This document shows, piece by piece, positions 42,524-49,314 of a stretch of DNA of 64,000 nt. The notes under the pieces were generated by a model, which was given only the letters and a program-made list of their open reading frames with translations, did not search any database and was not told the DNA's origin. Position 1 is the stretch's first letter; the number at the start of each line of letters is the position of its first letter. This stretch comes from Verrucomicrobiales bacterium (lineage in GTDB: Bacteria > Verrucomicrobiota > Verrucomicrobiia > Verrucomicrobiales > DEV007). Where the stretch lies: assembly GCA_029213265.1 (NCBI GenBank), contig JARGNG010000013.1:1-64000 (forward strand), written 5' to 3'. A program made the position numbers and the translations under genes.

Positions 42524-42530
<7 letters not shown>

Positions 42531-44713
42531 TCTTTCAAGCCAAGATTTTCCAGCATCTCGCTGATCCCGGTTGTCGGCATTTTGCAGGCAAAACTCTCGC
42601 AAACATAAGCGGTCGCTTTTCCGTCCTCGGAAACCTGCGTTTCGGTGAACGGAGCAAGCTTCGCAAGCGCCTCCGCATTGTCCCCTGTGCGGTATAAAAT
42701 GACTTTGTTAGGAAGGTAGGGCTTCTGCAATGCTTTGACCATGTGATCGGCTTCCTCGCCACTGATCACGATCTCCCTGGATGGCCCGAATTGAAAATCG
42801 AGCCAAACCAGAGCCAGTGGGTAGACCATGGAATTCTGTCCCAGTTCAGCGGAGAATGCCCGGACCAGTTCATCTCCGCGCGTCGCAAAGTGGGGCTGCC
42901 CCGTCATTCGATGAAGGCGAAGAAGATTTCCGATCGCGGCCGCGTTTCCACTGGGAATCGCCCCGCCATACAGTTTCTTGGCACGGACAATGAGCTGCTC
43001 TGCATCGTCTGCGATTGTAAAATAACCGCCCTCCTGCTCGTCCCAGAAAAACTCATCCATCATTGCCTGAAGCTCGATTGCTTTCTCTAAATATCGTACT
43101 TCGAACGTCGCCTCGTAGGTATCGAGCAACCCCCAAATCATGAAGGTGTAATCCTCGAGGTGGGCCGTTAACCCGGCCTCCCCCTGGCGGTACCGCTTGA
43201 GAAGGCGACCGTCCCCGGTGGTCAGTTTATCGAGCACAAAGTCAGATGCCTTTGCCGCCACTGACTTGTATTCCTCGTCTCCCAATACCTGGGCCGCCCG
43301 GGCAAAGGCCGCAATCATCAGCCCATTCCAGTCCGTCAGGATCTTATCGTCTTTCTGCGGATGAGTTCGCTTCTCCCGAACTTCGAACAATTTCTTCCGA
43401 AGCGGCTCGATTCTCGCCAGGGCCTCGTCGAGCGGATCCTCTTTCAGGTGTGGAATGTTCGCCCCCGTTTTCTCACGAGTCGACTCCTCAAGAAAGTTCC
43501 CCTCGTCCTCAAAATGAAAGGTCTCCAGAAAAAACGCGGCGTCCTCCCCGCCCAACACTTCGCTGATTTCCTCACTGGTCCAGACATAAAACTTTCCCTC
43601 CTCCCCTTCGCTATCGGCATCTTCCGCAGAGTAGAATCCACCTTCCGGGCTTGTCATTTCGCGCTGGACATAGGACAGAATTTCCCGGGCTGTTCGGGCA
43701 TACTTCTGCTTTCCCGTTACCTGGTAGGCTTCAAGGTTCGCTATCGTCACGAGCGCCTGGTCATAGAGCATTTTCTCAAAATGCGGAACGAGCCAGTCGG
43801 GGTCGGTTGCATAGCGGTGAATACCATATCCGATCTGATCGTAGACTCCGCCACGCCTCATCTCGGTGAGTGTTTTCTCCACCATTTCAAGCGCCTGTGG
43901 GTTGCCGGTCCGATGGTGATATCGAAGCAGGAAGAGCAGATTCGGAGGAACCGGGAACTTGGGTCGAACCGCGAAGCCTCCCTTCTTCGAATCATATCGC
44001 GACACAAACTGCTCGAAGGCCGTGTCGAGGACTTCCACGTCGAGATCCCCACCCGGCGAAGCCCCCATCATCTTGCCGACTTGGGCGGAAATATTCAACG
44101 CGGTCTCTTCCACTTCCTCCCTTCGCTCAACCCAGGCTTTGCGCAATTCTGAAACAACCCGCTTGATACCGGGACGACCGGCCACGGACTCTTTCGGAAA
44201 GTAAGTTCCCGCGAAGAAGGCATGCTTGTCAGGGGTCAAAACCACCGTCATGGGCCATCCGCCGCCCCCCGTGATCCCCTGCGTGATCTGCATATAGACG
44301 TCGTCAATGTCGGGTCGTTCCTCCCGATCGACCTTTACTGCAATGAAGCTCTCGTTGATCAGGGCCGCGACTTCCTCATCTTCGAACGACTCGTGTTCCA
44401 TGACATGACACCAGTGGCAGGTCGTGTAGCCGATACTGAGAAAGACCGGCTTGTCCTGCTTTTTCGCCTCGGCGAAGGCCACCTCTCCCCACGGACGCCA
44501 ATCGACCGGATTTCGGGCGTGCTGGAGAAGATAGGGACTCTGCTCGAAGACGAGGCGATTGAACTCCTTTCCTCCATCTTCCGGCAGCTTCGCGAGTTCC
44601 TCCTGCGACGGCAGAGGTTTGCGAACATGTCCTTCTTCCGCATTCATCATCCAGCCACCATGCACGCAGAGAAGGGAGAAAACGACAAAGAATCGCGGTA
44701 ACAATCGAGGCAT
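42524..44713 (-). CDS. YyaL/DUF255 thioredoxin-domain protein, secreted
   Basis: 729 residues from ATG 44713 ([20 protein letters not shown]), which opens a signal peptide; the frame continues upstream to 44770. A thioredoxin-like domain contains the CHWC motif (residues 99-102, [20 protein letters not shown]), and the family's long C-terminal half follows with an (alpha/alpha) barrel-like sequence such as [18 protein letters not shown] and [15 protein letters not shown]. The biological role in bacteria is not established. It follows msrA by 67 bp, a plausible reducing partner of periplasmic thiols. Confidence 0.92.
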
Positions 44714-44780
44714 GCAGTCAGTGTTGCATAGTTCGAGTAGGGACACTACCCCCGAATGGCGTCGAGCCAATCCACCCCGT

Positions 44781-45488
44781 TCAAACCCGACTTGCTACCA
44801 TCGCCTTCAGATCTGAGGGCAGGTCATAACGATCGATCTCAGCTTCGAGTAGACCTTGCACGTCTCCGACTCCCGAAAAGAGAATTGCGTTGAGCCGGGT
44901 AGCCACCGTTGAGTCTGCCAATGACTTCACATCCGGATACGTCGCCTCGAGAAACGCACGAAGCTCGCGAAATTGAGTCAGATAGTATTTCTGATGATAT
45001 CCTTCTGCGTAGGTAAACTGCTTCACCGGAATAATCTCCGTTTCGACCCTCTCCCCTGCCGCAACGAGTTCATCCCGGGAAGCTTCTGCGGCCTCCTGCT
45101 GGGCTTCGTTTCGATAAAATACGGCATGCCAGTATTGGCGCCTGGGATTGTTAGAGGAAGGCCGATGACTCTTCCAGAAGATCCGAAGTAGATCGCGGTA
45201 GGAAATTACTTCCGGATCGTAGTCAAACGACACGGCCTCGGTATGGTCGACCAAATCGTAGTAGGTGGGTGCTACCTTGTCCCCTCCGCAGTACCCGGCG
45301 CGAATACGAAGAATTCCATCAAGACTCCCAAACTGAGAGTCCGGCCCCCAGAATCACCCGAGGCCGAAAGTGGCGGTTTCGAACTTCCGCTCCGAGGTCT
45401 CGCAATCGAGCGTTAGAGAGGCGGCGGAAACAGTTCCGTCCTCCAAAGGTAAGGGGATGGTATCGGCAGATCTGGATTTGGTGAACAT
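44781..45488 (-). CDS. msrA: Peptide methionine sulfoxide reductase A, selenocysteine-containing (UGA recoded)
   Basis: Read from ATG 45488 ([18 protein letters not shown]) the frame runs 235 residues if the single in-frame TGA at 45356-45354 (codon 45) is read as selenocysteine. The context is [16 protein letters not shown], where MsrA has the catalytic Cys (GCFWG). Downstream sequence continues the family without a break: [36 protein letters not shown], and EGYHQKYYL. It reduces methionine-S-sulfoxide residues. Without readthrough only an N-terminally truncated fragment (start TTG 45254) would be found. A SECIS-like hairpin follows at 45322-45342. No selA, selB or selC is in the window. It lies 51 bp after DUF1552. 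A nonsense mutation is the alternative, but intact family sequence on both sides argues against it. Confidence 0.85.
45322..45342 (-). promoter_or_regulatory. Putative bacterial SECIS element of msrA
   Basis: On the minus strand GGACTCTC (45342-45335) pairs with GGGAGTCT (45329-45322), eight pairs including two wobbles, around the five-base loop AGTTT. The loop starts 20 bases after the UGA and has G at its second position, matching the general bacterial SECIS rule of a hairpin with a G near the top, about 16-37 bases after the UGA. Confidence 0.65.
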
Positions 45489-45539: not shown

Positions 45540-46871
45540 TCACGCAAGCACTTCGCTCAGGTCTCCGGTGCTGTCGGAAAACGCCTCTTCCGGAACCCCT
45601 ACGCTGTGGAGCATCGTAAGCAGCAGATTCGACATCGGCACATCAGCTCCCAGCTTTATATGCTGACCATTTTTCATTCCGATTGCCTTTCCCCCAGCGG
45701 TCAACATGGGGCAATTGTTATTGTTGTGCGTGTTGCTGTTGCTCGTTCCGAAGAGAACCACGGTGCGATCGAGCAGGGTCTCGTCCCCTTCCGGGGTCGA
45801 CTTCATTCGGTCCAGGAAACGTGACAACTGCTGCGCCAGAAACCGGTCCCACTTCCCCAGTGCTTCGGCTCCGCCCTTTTTGTTCCATCCATGAGCCAAG
45901 CCATGCATATTCTTGGGGAGCCCGAGCAATTCCGGAAACTTCCCTGCGATGGAGGTGGCTCCGTTCATGTTTCCGATCTGGTAGGTCGCGACACGCGTCG
46001 AGTCGGTTTGAAACGCGAGATAGATCAGATCGTACATGGTGCTGATGTACTCTTCGGGCGTGTTCTCATCGGCGTCGAGAAACAAACCGACCGTGTCCAC
46101 TTCCGGCTTGGGCACATCGAGCCACGCCTCCGATCGCTCCACTCGTTGCTCAATCGAACGGACCGAATCGAGATACTCATCAAATTTTTCCTGATCATGT
46201 TTCCCCAGCTTCTTTCGAACTGACTTGGAATGCTCCAACACGAGGTCCAGCATCGTGCCGGAACTCATGAGTTCCTTTCGCTGCCGCTTCAGGGAGTCTT
46301 CGTTCGCTCCGAAAAAGCGATTGAAGATGACTCGCGGTTTGTTCAAAGCCGGGATCGGCTGGCCGGTTCGGCCAAAAGAAAGCGTACTGGCACGGGTCGG
46401 CTCCCCCACTCCACCGTCGGTCGAGAGACTGAGGGATCGATAGCGAGTCGCTTCGCCGAATGCCTCCGCCGCGACCTGATCCGCAGACACAGAATTTTTC
46501 AACTCGCCCGGCTTCAGCTCCGCCCCTGTCAGAAAAATGTCGGCGGTGTCATGACCGCCCATTTTTCTTCCTTTCAGATGGGAGAGCCCCTCTATTATGG
46601 TGAGGTTCTCGCGATGAGCCTCAAGCGGTTTCAGGCTCTCGTTGAAAGAAAAGTTTCTTCCCCCTTCTCCATTGGGGAACCAACGCCAGCTGGAACCTTC
46701 CCCGCCCTCTTTCGGAAGACTCGCTCCGTAGGGAAAATATACGGAACAGAATCTGCGGGGCCGTGGCGACGAAGCCGCCTCAAGCCCCATGCACTCCAGC
46801 AAGGGAAGGCCGAGTGAAGCTCCCGCACCGTGGAGAAATGTTCGTCGATTCAGATACCAGGATTTTTTCAT
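45540..46871 (-). CDS. DUF1552 protein, twin-arginine secreted
   Basis: 443 residues from ATG 46871 (MKKSWYLNRRTFLHGAGASLG); the RRTFLHGAG twin-arginine motif is followed by a hydrophobic stretch, so it is probably exported by Tat. The family pattern is clear: RFCSVYFPYGASLP, EGLSHLKGRKMGGHDTADIFL and LFGTSNSNTHNNNNCPML. DUF1552 genes in planctomycetes and verrucomicrobia usually follow a DUF1592/1588 haem protein gene, as here (10 bp gap). The function is unknown. Confidence 0.92.
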   Translation of the reverse strand: MKKSWYLNRRTFLHGAGASLGLPLLECMGLEAASSPRPRRFCSVYFPYGASLPKEGGEGSSWRWFPNGEGGRNFSFNESLKPLEAHRENLTIIEGLSHLKGRKMGGHDTADIFLTGAELKPGELKNSVSADQVAAEAFGEATRYRSLSLSTDGGVGEPTRASTLSFGRTGQPIPALNKPRVIFNRFFGANEDSLKRQRKELMSSGTMLDLVLEHSKSVRKKLGKHDQEKFDEYLDSVRSIEQRVERSEAWLDVPKPEVDTVGLFLDADENTPEEYISTMYDLIYLAFQTDSTRVATYQIGNMNGATSIAGKFPELLGLPKNMHGLAHGWNKKGGAEALGKWDRFLAQQLSRFLDRMKSTPEGDETLLDRTVVLFGTSNSNTHNNNNCPMLTAGGKAIGMKNGQHIKLGADVPMSNLLLTMLHSVGVPEEAFSDSTGDLSEVLA

Positions 46872-46881
46872 CTGCTTGCGT

Positions 46882-49314
46882 CTATTTGGTGTGGAAAAGC
46901 TCACTCGAAACAATTTTCGAAATCAAGTAGCGAAGACGGAAATCGTTCTTCGAAAAGTCCGAGGAAATTTCATCAACATCTGCCTGATCAGTCAATTCCA
47001 GTGATCTCCCGAGCGCATAACTGGAAAGACGGGAAACCAGAGCCCGGCCAAACTGATCCTTTCGCTTCTTCAACAAATAGGATTTCAGGCCTACCATTCC
47101 TTCCACCATCTCGCCATCGGGGAGCTCGGCGTCCGCTTCAATGGGCAGCTCGTACCAGACCTCGCGTTTCTTCGATTGCGGATCCTTGCGGCGTATCTTC
47201 TCCCTCCACTGCCCGATCGCGTCGTAGTTTTCCATCGCAATACCCCAGGGATCAATTCCCCGATGACAATCGGCACAGGACGGGTCTTCGCGATGATGCT
47301 CCAGTTGCTCCCGAACGGGCAATTTTGCCATGTCGGGGCTTTCTCCGTCCAACTCCGGCACATTCGGCGGCGGGGGTGCAGGCGGATCGTCGAGCAATTG
47401 ATTCCGAAGCCAGACGGCCCGGAGAATCGGATGAGAATCCTCGCCGGTTGAATTCCCGAGAAGAATCGATGCCTGAGTCAGAAGCCCTCCGCGACGAATC
47501 CCTTCGGCAAGTTTGACTCTTTCAAAAGTCGTCCCGCCCGGACCACCCTCCACTCCGTAGTGCCTCGCCATGGGCTCGTTCAGCATGACAAAATCGGAGT
47601 CGATAAAGTTTAGCGCACTGAGATCTTTTCGCAGCACTTCGGAAAAGAATGCCCGCGTCTCGGCCTGCATATGGGGCTTCAGGGAAGTGTCGAAATCCTC
47701 GTAGTATTCCGGATTCACAGCGATCCGATCGACGCTACTGAGATCGAGCCATTGACTGGCAAACTGCTCTACAAACCGATCTGACCGCGGGTCGTCCAGC
47801 AATCGTCCTGTTTCCTGCCGCAACACTTCCTGCTTTCTCAGATCTCCGCTTTCCGCGAGGCGGATGAGCCGCTCGTCCGGCATTGTATTCCAGAGAAAAT
47901 AGGACAGGCGGGACGCCAGCTCAAACTCATTGAGCGACCGTTTTTCCTCCTCACCCGGCTCGATCAGATAGAGGAAGTCCGGCGAAATCAGGGTCATCGC
48001 AAGCACCTCCCGCATCGCAAGCTCAAATCGCTTCACCGTCGGACGAACTTTTCGATAGAACCGCATCAGGAATTCCACCTCCACCGCTTCGACGGGGCGA
48101 CGGAAAGCACGCTTCGCAAATCGAGCCACCACCTCCCTCGCGTAGGCTTCTTCATTTTCCTCGCGGAGACTCGACTCGAATAGAATCCTGCGATGAGGTT
48201 CCGGCGGCCAACTCGAAAAGACAGGAGCGGTAAATGAAAAGGACTCAATCACGACCTTGGGGAAGTTCGGATCCTCTACGTAAACCTGCTTCGTTTTCTT
48301 TTTTCCTTTCGCGTTGGTGTCCGTGACTTTTTGCAGCGATTGGAATTCTTCCCCGTCTTTGTAGACATTGCTGATCCAAGTCAGCATGCCCGGATACTTG
48401 CTTTGGGAACGACTTTGAATCGGGAAGCTTTCCATCCGCCCGCGAAAGACAAACTCCCTCGCTTCGTCACTCGTCACATCAACGATCGCCACATCTTCGG
48501 CGGGAGCCTGCGTGTCGGCCCGATAGCCAAATCGAACCTTCATCCGGGGAAATCCTTTTCCTTCAACGAGCTCGGCCCGGGCCCGGATTCTCATTTCAAA
48601 TTCCCCTTCGTCCGGAAACCCGGGGATTCTCGCTACAAAGCTCCCCACTCGGCCGAGGCGGTTGGTATAATTCCCCTTTCCCTTATCAGCCACCGTCTCT
48701 TCCGAAGAGTGCAGGGAAACCTCCGGCCGCCCGGAAGTCACAATCGCACTCTGAAGCCCTTTCCTGGCCGCTTCGAGATAGTATTCCAACTGCATTGGAG
48801 ACATCGATAAAACGGCACCATTGTTCTTGAATCCTTCGGGCGAGACACTGTCAGGAGGAAGGTTGGAAATATAATCAAGATCCAAACCTAACAAATCAAC
48901 CATCGTATCCTGATACTCAGACCGGTTCAGGCGCCGGACTACGGCACGCCCGCCAGTGCTCTCCATTTCGGAAATGGCGAGGTCGATCTGCCCCTGAATC
49001 CACCCCGTCAAAAGCGCCCGGCCCTCCTGGGAAAGTGGCGGCTCGTCTTCTGGCGGCATTTCTCCCAAATGCAGCGCATTCAACGCATCGTGCCAGGTTT
49101 CCGCGGCAGCGCGTTCCTGAATCAGATCCGTCGGAAGGGTATCAAAACGAATGTCTGACTTCTGCTTTTCGGGACCATGACAGGAATAGCAATGCTCCTT
49201 TAAAACCGCCCGCACCGCAGCATCCATTTCCGCAGCTGCCGGCGGGGAAAAGAGAAGACAAAGAAAAACAACGATCACAAAGACTCTCAAGCTATCAAGA
49301 AACACTCTTTCCAT
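46882..49314 (-). CDS. DUF1592/DUF1588-type c-haem secreted protein
   Basis: 810 residues with a signal peptide (MERVFLDSLRVFVIVVFLCLL) and one CXXCH haem motif near the N-terminus (CYSCHGPEK, C42-H46). The multi-domain order typical of this family is visible: DUF1587 (RLNRSEYQDTMVDLLGLD), DUF1595/DUF1592 (SLNEFELASRLSYFLWNTMPD), DUF1588 (IRRGGLLTQASILLGNSTGEDS, VWLRNQLLDDPPAPPPPNVP) and DUF1585 (YLISKIVSSELF). Together with DUF1552 it probably forms an envelope redox or substrate-processing pair characteristic of this phylum group. Confidence 0.93.
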   Translation of the reverse strand: MERVFLDSLRVFVIVVFLCLLFSPPAAAEMDAAVRAVLKEHCYSCHGPEKQKSDIRFDTLPTDLIQERAAAETWHDALNALHLGEMPPEDEPPLSQEGRALLTGWIQGQIDLAISEMESTGGRAVVRRLNRSEYQDTMVDLLGLDLDYISNLPPDSVSPEGFKNNGAVLSMSPMQLEYYLEAARKGLQSAIVTSGRPEVSLHSSEETVADKGKGNYTNRLGRVGSFVARIPGFPDEGEFEMRIRARAELVEGKGFPRMKVRFGYRADTQAPAEDVAIVDVTSDEAREFVFRGRMESFPIQSRSQSKYPGMLTWISNVYKDGEEFQSLQKVTDTNAKGKKKTKQVYVEDPNFPKVVIESFSFTAPVFSSWPPEPHRRILFESSLREENEEAYAREVVARFAKRAFRRPVEAVEVEFLMRFYRKVRPTVKRFELAMREVLAMTLISPDFLYLIEPGEEEKRSLNEFELASRLSYFLWNTMPDERLIRLAESGDLRKQEVLRQETGRLLDDPRSDRFVEQFASQWLDLSSVDRIAVNPEYYEDFDTSLKPHMQAETRAFFSEVLRKDLSALNFIDSDFVMLNEPMARHYGVEGGPGGTTFERVKLAEGIRRGGLLTQASILLGNSTGEDSHPILRAVWLRNQLLDDPPAPPPPNVPELDGESPDMAKLPVREQLEHHREDPSCADCHRGIDPWGIAMENYDAIGQWREKIRRKDPQSKKREVWYELPIEADAELPDGEMVEGMVGLKSYLLKKRKDQFGRALVSRLSSYALGRSLELTDQADVDEISSDFSKNDFRLRYLISKIVSSELFHTK

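What the first reader, a model, noticed from the sequence alone, without database searches (positions are those of the whole stretch)
44781..45488. MsrA with an in-frame UGA at the catalytic cysteine: candidate selenoprotein
Seen: an MsrA gene whose only open reading frame from a standard start lacks the catalytic motif; extending it upstream through one TGA (45356-45354) gives a complete 235-residue protein with TGA exactly where GCFWG has Cys, and intact family sequence on both sides. Established: some bacterial MsrA proteins use selenocysteine there. Inference: this is a functional selenoprotein of a verrucomicrobial lineage, and ordinary gene calling would record it as a truncated msrA.
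Basis: partly seen in the sequence, partly recalled or inferred. Interest (0 to 1): 0.85.

Follow-up and report, generated by a model that had tools for sequence, protein, structure and literature searches.

The report
Selenocysteine MsrA in Verrucomicrobiales bacterium
A gene that looks broken by a stop codon is almost certainly an intact protein-repair enzyme carrying selenocysteine in its active site; related bacteria share the arrangement, and this type of enzyme was already known elsewhere.

Summary
On the minus strand (44781-45488) one in-frame TGA (45356-45354) sits at the catalytic codon of a full-length MsrA (GUFWG, 235 aa; Pfam PMSR 2.9e-36). The interpretation also holds. The same genome has selA, selB and selD within about 8 kb and a UCA tRNA-Sec; its selD carries its own TGA at codon 17. 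In the family, all 16 readable copies of this subtype, the window's included, have TGA at this codon (15 of 74 genomes). Of 58 loci from named genomes, 50 are UGA, 6 Cys and 2 begin after the codon. A hairpin after the UGA fits the four published bacterial SECIS constraints. Sequence and predicted fold put the protein next to the proven selenoprotein MsrA of Clostridium oremlandii, including its special C-terminal helical domain. So this is a new member of a known kind. One departure: C. oremlandii MsrA has no cysteine besides Sec, whereas the main Verrucomicrobiales group (48 of 48 rows) has Cys at position 67 and/or 110, possible resolving residues. That pattern is suggestive, not significant once relatedness is allowed for. 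Nothing was tested at the bench.

The parts
44781..45488 (-). msrA coding sequence with one in-frame UGA, 235 aa plus TGA stop
   Evidence: against L061, codons 1-44, 46-138 and 155-235 show pN 0.21/0.15/0.18 and pS 0.94/0.84/0.82 (one pair of sequences, synonymous sites saturated)
45354..45356 (-). Sec-UGA, codon 45, catalytic residue of GUFWG
   Evidence: same column in all 15 rows of alignment A1
45322..45342 (-). Predicted SECIS hairpin: 9-bp stem, GUU loop 20 nt after the UGA
   Evidence: conservation
45288..45290 (-). Codon of Cys67 (GYCGG), candidate resolving cysteine
   Evidence: the role is inference
45237..45239 (-). Codon of Glu84, aligned with proton-donor Glu55 of C. oremlandii MsrA
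   Evidence: Register of the alignment; invariant in the 41 rows of A2; role of Glu55 from PMC4479559 passages
44784..44987 (-). C-terminal helical domain (about residues 168-235)
   Evidence: AlphaFold2 helices 168-172, 174-183, 187-191, 194-204, 210-221, 225-234; alignment to C. oremlandii MsrA runs to its residue 202

Best explanation
The gene encodes a selenoprotein methionine-S-sulfoxide reductase of the C. oremlandii MsrA type. SelA makes Sec on the UCA tRNA with SelD's selenophosphate. SelB, bound to the hairpin just after the UGA, delivers it to codon 45. Sec45 attacks methionine-S-sulfoxide with Glu84 as likely proton donor, giving a selenenic acid, which is reset through a thiol: glutaredoxin, a second enzyme molecule, or in this lineage possibly Cys67. 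Shown here: the frame, the conserved UGA, genes for the whole Sec machinery, a SECIS-like hairpin, the protein family and the predicted fold. Inferred: that Sec is actually inserted, the enzyme activity, and how the enzyme is recycled.
For: Full-length MsrA across the UGA. selA, selB, selD and tRNA-Sec in the same genome; selD itself has TGA17 in SSCAGUASK followed by a hairpin with loop GGUCU. UGA in 16 of 16 readable family copies, the window's included (15 of 74 genomes), and in 50 of 58 loci from named genomes, the rest being 6 Cys and 2 cut off before the codon (this set overlaps the family set). Of the 15 genomes, 14 have selA over the cut-off and G065 a 91.7-bit C-terminal piece, against 47 of 74 overall (p 6e-4 to 9e-4, not corrected for relatedness). 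Hairpin energies summed over 46 distinct Sec sequences: -459.8 kcal/mol against -325.6 (sd 18.4) for synonymous recodings. A hairpin with G in the first two loop places 18-21 nt from the codon: 48 of 50 distinct Sec sequences, against 2 of 6 Cys homologs, one of these two not stable at +1.0 kcal/mol. Ser51 is UCC/UCU in 52 of 52 Sec genes against 31% of their other Ser codons. AlphaFold2 pLDDT 94.5; the seven best solved matches are C. oremlandii MsrA chains, TM 0.85-0.86 by target length and 0.74-0.75 by query length, 42% identity.
Against: No protein-level evidence. Taken alone, the window's hairpin is not exceptional: 10.5% of synonymous recodings fold as well, and 68 of 200 shuffles of the 39 nt from the UGA on do, though none of 200 does for the 71-nt stretch around it. 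The codon null treats related sequences as independent, and only 4 of 15 sequences fall below 0.05 singly. A strict uninterrupted stem meeting all four published constraints occurs in 17 of 50 distinct Sec segments (the window's does). Plain folding energy does not separate Sec from Cys genes: means -10.0 (46 UGA), -9.7 (4 TGC), -7.6 (2 TGT), and one Cys homolog (L115) can form a similar hairpin at -6.1. Two Cys MsrAs exist in the genome, so this is not the cell's only MsrA. A ribosome-binding site was not tested for.
Confidence: 0.95

Rival explanations
1. The gene is a nonsense-mutated msrA pseudogene, or the TGA is an assembly error.
For: A gene caller would see a truncated ORF from a TTG start; intact Cys MsrA paralogs exist.
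Against: The same TGA is in 16 of 16 readable family copies and in 50 of the 56 named-genome loci that reach the codon; purifying selection on both sides of the TGA in the pair tested; no other disruption; Sec machinery present.
Confidence: 0.01
2. The UGA is a regulated stop or is read as another residue, so that mostly a short peptide is made with some full-length product.
For: UGA read-through by other means is known in some bacteria (recalled). The hairpin of the window alone is not stronger than chance.
Against: The position is exactly the nucleophile where Cys stands in homologs; the genome has tRNA-Sec, SelA, SelB and SelD, and a Sec-type SelD; the nearest solved relative is a proven Sec enzyme.
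Confidence: 0.03
3. It is a Sec protein of MsrA fold that acts on something other than peptidyl methionine-S-sulfoxide, while the two Cys MsrAs do the housekeeping repair.
For: Active-site loops differ from ordinary MsrA (compared by eye); two Cys paralogs are present.
Against: Its closest solved relative shares the subtype and reduces methionine sulfoxide (PMC4333827, part 1 of 4 read); Glu84, Tyr76, Gln118 and Tyr119 are invariant in 41 rows.
Confidence: 0.08

Closest known systems
Selenoprotein MsrA of Clostridium oremlandii (PDB 4lwj, 4lwk, 4lwl, 4lwm, 4u66)
   Same: Sec in the GCFWG position; aligned active-site Glu, Tyr and Gln; C-terminal helical domain, essential in CoMsrA (PMC4333827); 42% identity over about 200 columns, TM 0.85 by target length
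   Different: CoMsrA has no Cys besides Sec16 (PMC4333827); the window protein has Cys29 and Cys67 and about 29 more residues at its N-terminus
Ordinary Cys MsrA (E. coli 1ff3; own-genome paralogs at G000:C120 and C118)
   Same: PF01625 fold and active-site motif
   Different: Cys instead of Sec, longer active-site loops; own-genome copies are 37% and 39% identical and match only the catalytic part; E. coli chains have TM 0.60-0.67 by target length
Selenoprotein SelD of the same genome (G000:C141)
   Same: In-frame UGA followed by a hairpin with G in the first loop positions
   Different: A different protein; loop GGUCU 32 nt from the UGA

Membership tests
Bacterial selenoprotein gene | In-frame UGA aligned with a catalytic Cys of homologs, conserved in relatives | tested here: met
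Bacterial selenoprotein gene | selA, selB, selC, selD in the genome | tested here: met
Bacterial selenoprotein gene | SECIS hairpin: loop 3-9 nt, upper stem 4-16 bp, G in first two loop positions, 16-37 nt from UGA, MFE <= -7.5 (PMC13188914 passages) | tested here: met
   Window: -10.5 kcal/mol, 20 nt, loop GUU, 9 bp. The strict unbulged form is met by 17 of 50 distinct Sec segments
Bacterial selenoprotein gene | Selenium found in the protein | not testable with these tools
   Needs proteomics or 75Se
MsrA (PF01625) | Profile match over the curated cut-off | tested here: met
   125.5 bits vs 23.7; TIGR00401 111.1 vs 108.1
MsrA (PF01625) | Reduces methionine-S-sulfoxide | not testable with these tools
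   No assay
C. oremlandii-type selenoprotein MsrA | C-terminal helical domain | tested here: met
C. oremlandii-type selenoprotein MsrA | Active-site Glu55, Tyr47, Gln89, Tyr90 of CoMsrA | tested here: met
   E84, Y76, Q118, Y119 by the register; invariant among 41 rows
C. oremlandii-type, '1-Cys' class | No Cys other than the catalytic residue | tested here: not met
   Window has Cys29 and Cys67; 48 of 48 rows of the main group have Cys67 and/or Cys110

The most novel reading that the evidence does not exclude
The Verrucomicrobiales branch turned the 1-Sec MsrA into a Sec/Cys enzyme: Sec45 is resolved inside the molecule by a cysteine that has shifted between two sites (110 in most of the group, 67 in the window's lineage), allowing recycling by thioredoxin rather than only by glutaredoxin or through dimers as in C. 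oremlandii.
Probability: 0.3. Interest if true: 0.5.

Novelty: new member of a known kind. Interest (0 to 1): 0.36.

Why it matters
It shows that selenium-dependent protein repair is spread through Verrucomicrobiales (Akkermansiaceae, Rubritalea and Roseibacillus among the record titles), and that a standard ORF list misses its catalytic part. The paper searches showed me none that describes it for this phylum, though Sec MsrA was already counted among marine selenoproteins (PMC2398784 passages). The two alternative cysteines pose a concrete, testable question about how a selenoenzyme of the 1-Cys type may gain a resolving residue.

Tried and rejected
Pseudogene and assembly error: rejected by the conserved UGA. 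AlphaFold2 on the single sequence gave pLDDT 37.6 and was discarded; it was repeated with a 41-row alignment. No model coordinates were found among my files, so the distance from Sec45 to residues 67 and 110 was not measured. Cys67/Cys110: among 48 rows of the main group, 24 have only 110, 16 both, 8 only 67, 0 neither; naive p 0.002, but only 2 tree-independent pairs on starred branches and 4 on all, so no significance. The group was defined afterwards, by motif UFWG and tree place (support 95/79, not starred); L108, L110 (UFWH), L122 (UFWT) and the Dehalococcoidia row L112 have neither Cys, which speaks against a universal need. Conserved redox neighbours: in the ten largest clusters printed the window appeared only with msrA itself. 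A codon-score scan for further in-frame TGA genes in the window gave no usable candidate. The NCBIfam hit to the VPGUxxT thioredoxin-like model is far below its cut-off and also hits a Cys MsrA; dismissed. Rows L063 and L111 begin after codon 45 and were left out of the tree and the hairpin counts. The phylum search used E <= 1e-40 on a sample of 387 genomes: 7 with a match, 2 of them UGA (own and G313), 5 without stops and matching the catalytic part only; weaker Cys relatives would not show at that threshold.

Papers seen as passages: PMC13188914, PMC12013277, PMC9312934, PMC2398784, PMC3281104, PMC4807772, PMC4479559, PMC6316033. PMC4333827: part 1 of 4 of the whole text. Others: search listings only. 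Kim et al. 2009 (PMC2671064), cited by these as the description of Clostridium Sec MsrA, is not held and may name further taxa.

Full report
What is there. On the minus strand the frame from ATG 45488 to the stop at 44781 contains one TGA, codon 45, at 45356-45354. With it read through, the protein is a complete MsrA: Pfam PMSR, residues 38-172, 2.9e-36. The TGA stands at the catalytic position of G(C/U)FWG. Without it, the MsrA ORF listed in this frame starts at a TTG and has 157 residues.

Is the UGA real and kept? In the window's family, 74 genomes were searched with the protein. Sixteen matches in 15 genomes, the window's included, carry the in-frame TGA. A further relative (G020, 298.5 bits) begins at a contig edge after the codon. 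Fifteen of the 16 align with TGA in one column, and the sixteenth, a second copy in G052, has it too (UFWT). The other matches score 103 bits or less, have no internal TGA (one, in G016, runs over a TAA) and mostly end before residue 191, short of the helical domain's end, as ordinary MsrAs do. A scan of named bacterial and archaeal genomes gave 58 loci (many are the same organisms as): 50 UGA, 6 Cys, 2 truncated before the codon. Of the UGA rows, 49 are Verrucomicrobiota by title or, for L096 titled only 'Bacterium', by tree place; one is a Dehalococcoidia. The Cys rows are Carnobacterium jeotgali, Halorutilus salinus, bacterium UBA2219 and three more distant MsrAs from Acidobacteriota and Deltaproteobacteria. 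Against its nearest relative L061, nonsynonymous differences are 0.15-0.21 per site and synonymous ones 0.82-0.94 (saturated), before and after the UGA alike. Both parts are therefore kept as protein.

Can the cell insert Sec? Its genome (5.87 Mb, 93.5% complete) has selA (514.7 bits), selB (281.4, or 307 with its C-terminal piece) and selD (379.2) within C141:30439-38748, and tRNA-Sec on C79 (61.5 bits against a gathering score of 47; ARAGORN anticodon tca). selD carries its own TGA at codon 17, a second likely selenoprotein. Over the family, selA exceeds its cut-off in 47 of 74 genomes, among them 14 of the 15 with UGA-MsrA; the 15th, G065, has a 91.7-bit C-terminal piece. The chance of this is 6e-4 to 9e-4 depending on how partial hits are counted, not corrected for relatedness.

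SECIS. The RNA after the UGA forms a 9-bp hairpin with a GUU loop 20 nt away, -10.5 kcal/mol (fold), fitting the four constraints quoted in PMC13188914. For the window alone this is weak evidence: 10.5% of synonymous recodings fold as well and 68 of 200 shuffles of the 39 nt do, though 0 of 200 do for the 71-nt stretch, z -3.15. Across 46 distinct Sec sequences the summed energy is -459.8 against -325.6 (sd 18.4) for synonymous recodings, treating relatives as independent. The Ser51 codon in the 5' arm is UCC or UCU in 52 of 52 Sec genes, against 31% of their other Ser codons. A hairpin of 4 bp or more with G in the first two loop places, 18-21 nt from the codon, is found in 48 of 50 distinct Sec segments and in 2 of 6 Cys homologs: L115 at -6.1 and L114 at +1.0 kcal/mol. 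The strict unbulged form with all constraints is found in 17 of 50. Plain folding energy does not separate the classes (means -10.0 UGA, -9.7 TGC, -7.6 TGT).

Which MsrA is it? The best solved relatives by sequence are C. oremlandii MsrA entries, 1.2e-50. An AlphaFold2 model from a 41-row alignment has pLDDT 94.5 and pTM 0.90, with the C-terminal helices. Foldseek puts seven C. oremlandii MsrA chains first, TM 0.85-0.86 by target length, 42% identity; E. coli chains 1ff3, 6yev and 7ot4 reach 0.60-0.67 and S. meliloti 4gwb 0.78 over a shorter chain. CoMsrA is a proven Sec enzyme, 20-fold more active than its Cys form, reduced by glutaredoxin and needing the helical domain (PMC4333827), and it can work through dimers (PMC4479559 passages). 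The window's genome has one glutaredoxin match, with CPWC.

What differs. CoMsrA has no cysteine besides Sec (PMC4333827). The window has Cys29 and Cys67. In the main Verrucomicrobiales group of 48 rows, 24 have Cys only at the position of window Pro110, 16 at both 67 and 110, 8 only at 67 (the window among them), none at neither. On the whole tree site 110 needs 5 changes and site 67 needs 7, but only 2 independent comparisons rest on starred branches and 4 on all, so the complementarity does not reach significance. Rows outside the group (L108, L110, L112, L122) have neither. I read it as a hint of an added resolving residue, at 0.3.

Verdict. A selenoprotein gene with near certainty, new as a member and, in the papers I could search, for this lineage, but of a known kind. 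The genome's other two MsrAs are ordinary Cys enzymes, so the Sec enzyme is an addition, not the only repair enzyme of its type.

Noticed in passing
L021:1390-2448 (-), G000:C141: selD of the same genome looks like a selenoprotein gene itself: TGA at codon 17 (SSCAGUASK) followed by an 8-bp hairpin with loop GGUCU.
   Followed up: partly
L122:942-1508 (G052:C28:7441-8007, -): One family genome has a second, divergent UGA MsrA with active site GUFWT, 43% identical to the window protein; two other rows read SUFWH and GUFWH (L108, L110).
   Followed up: partly
L112 (DUFA01000116.1), L113, L114: A Dehalococcoidia bin carries the same UGA MsrA type, while Carnobacterium jeotgali (L113) and Halorutilus salinus (L114) carry Cys versions.
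   Followed up: partly
window 42524-44770 (-): The gene directly downstream of msrA encodes a DUF255 thioredoxin-like protein (PF03190, 3.8e-74); whether it serves MsrA is unknown.
   Followed up: no
window 45540-49314 (-): Upstream lie a DUF1552 gene and a DUF1592-type (PSD/PSCyt) gene, a pair common in Planctomycetes and Verrucomicrobia (recalled).
   Followed up: no
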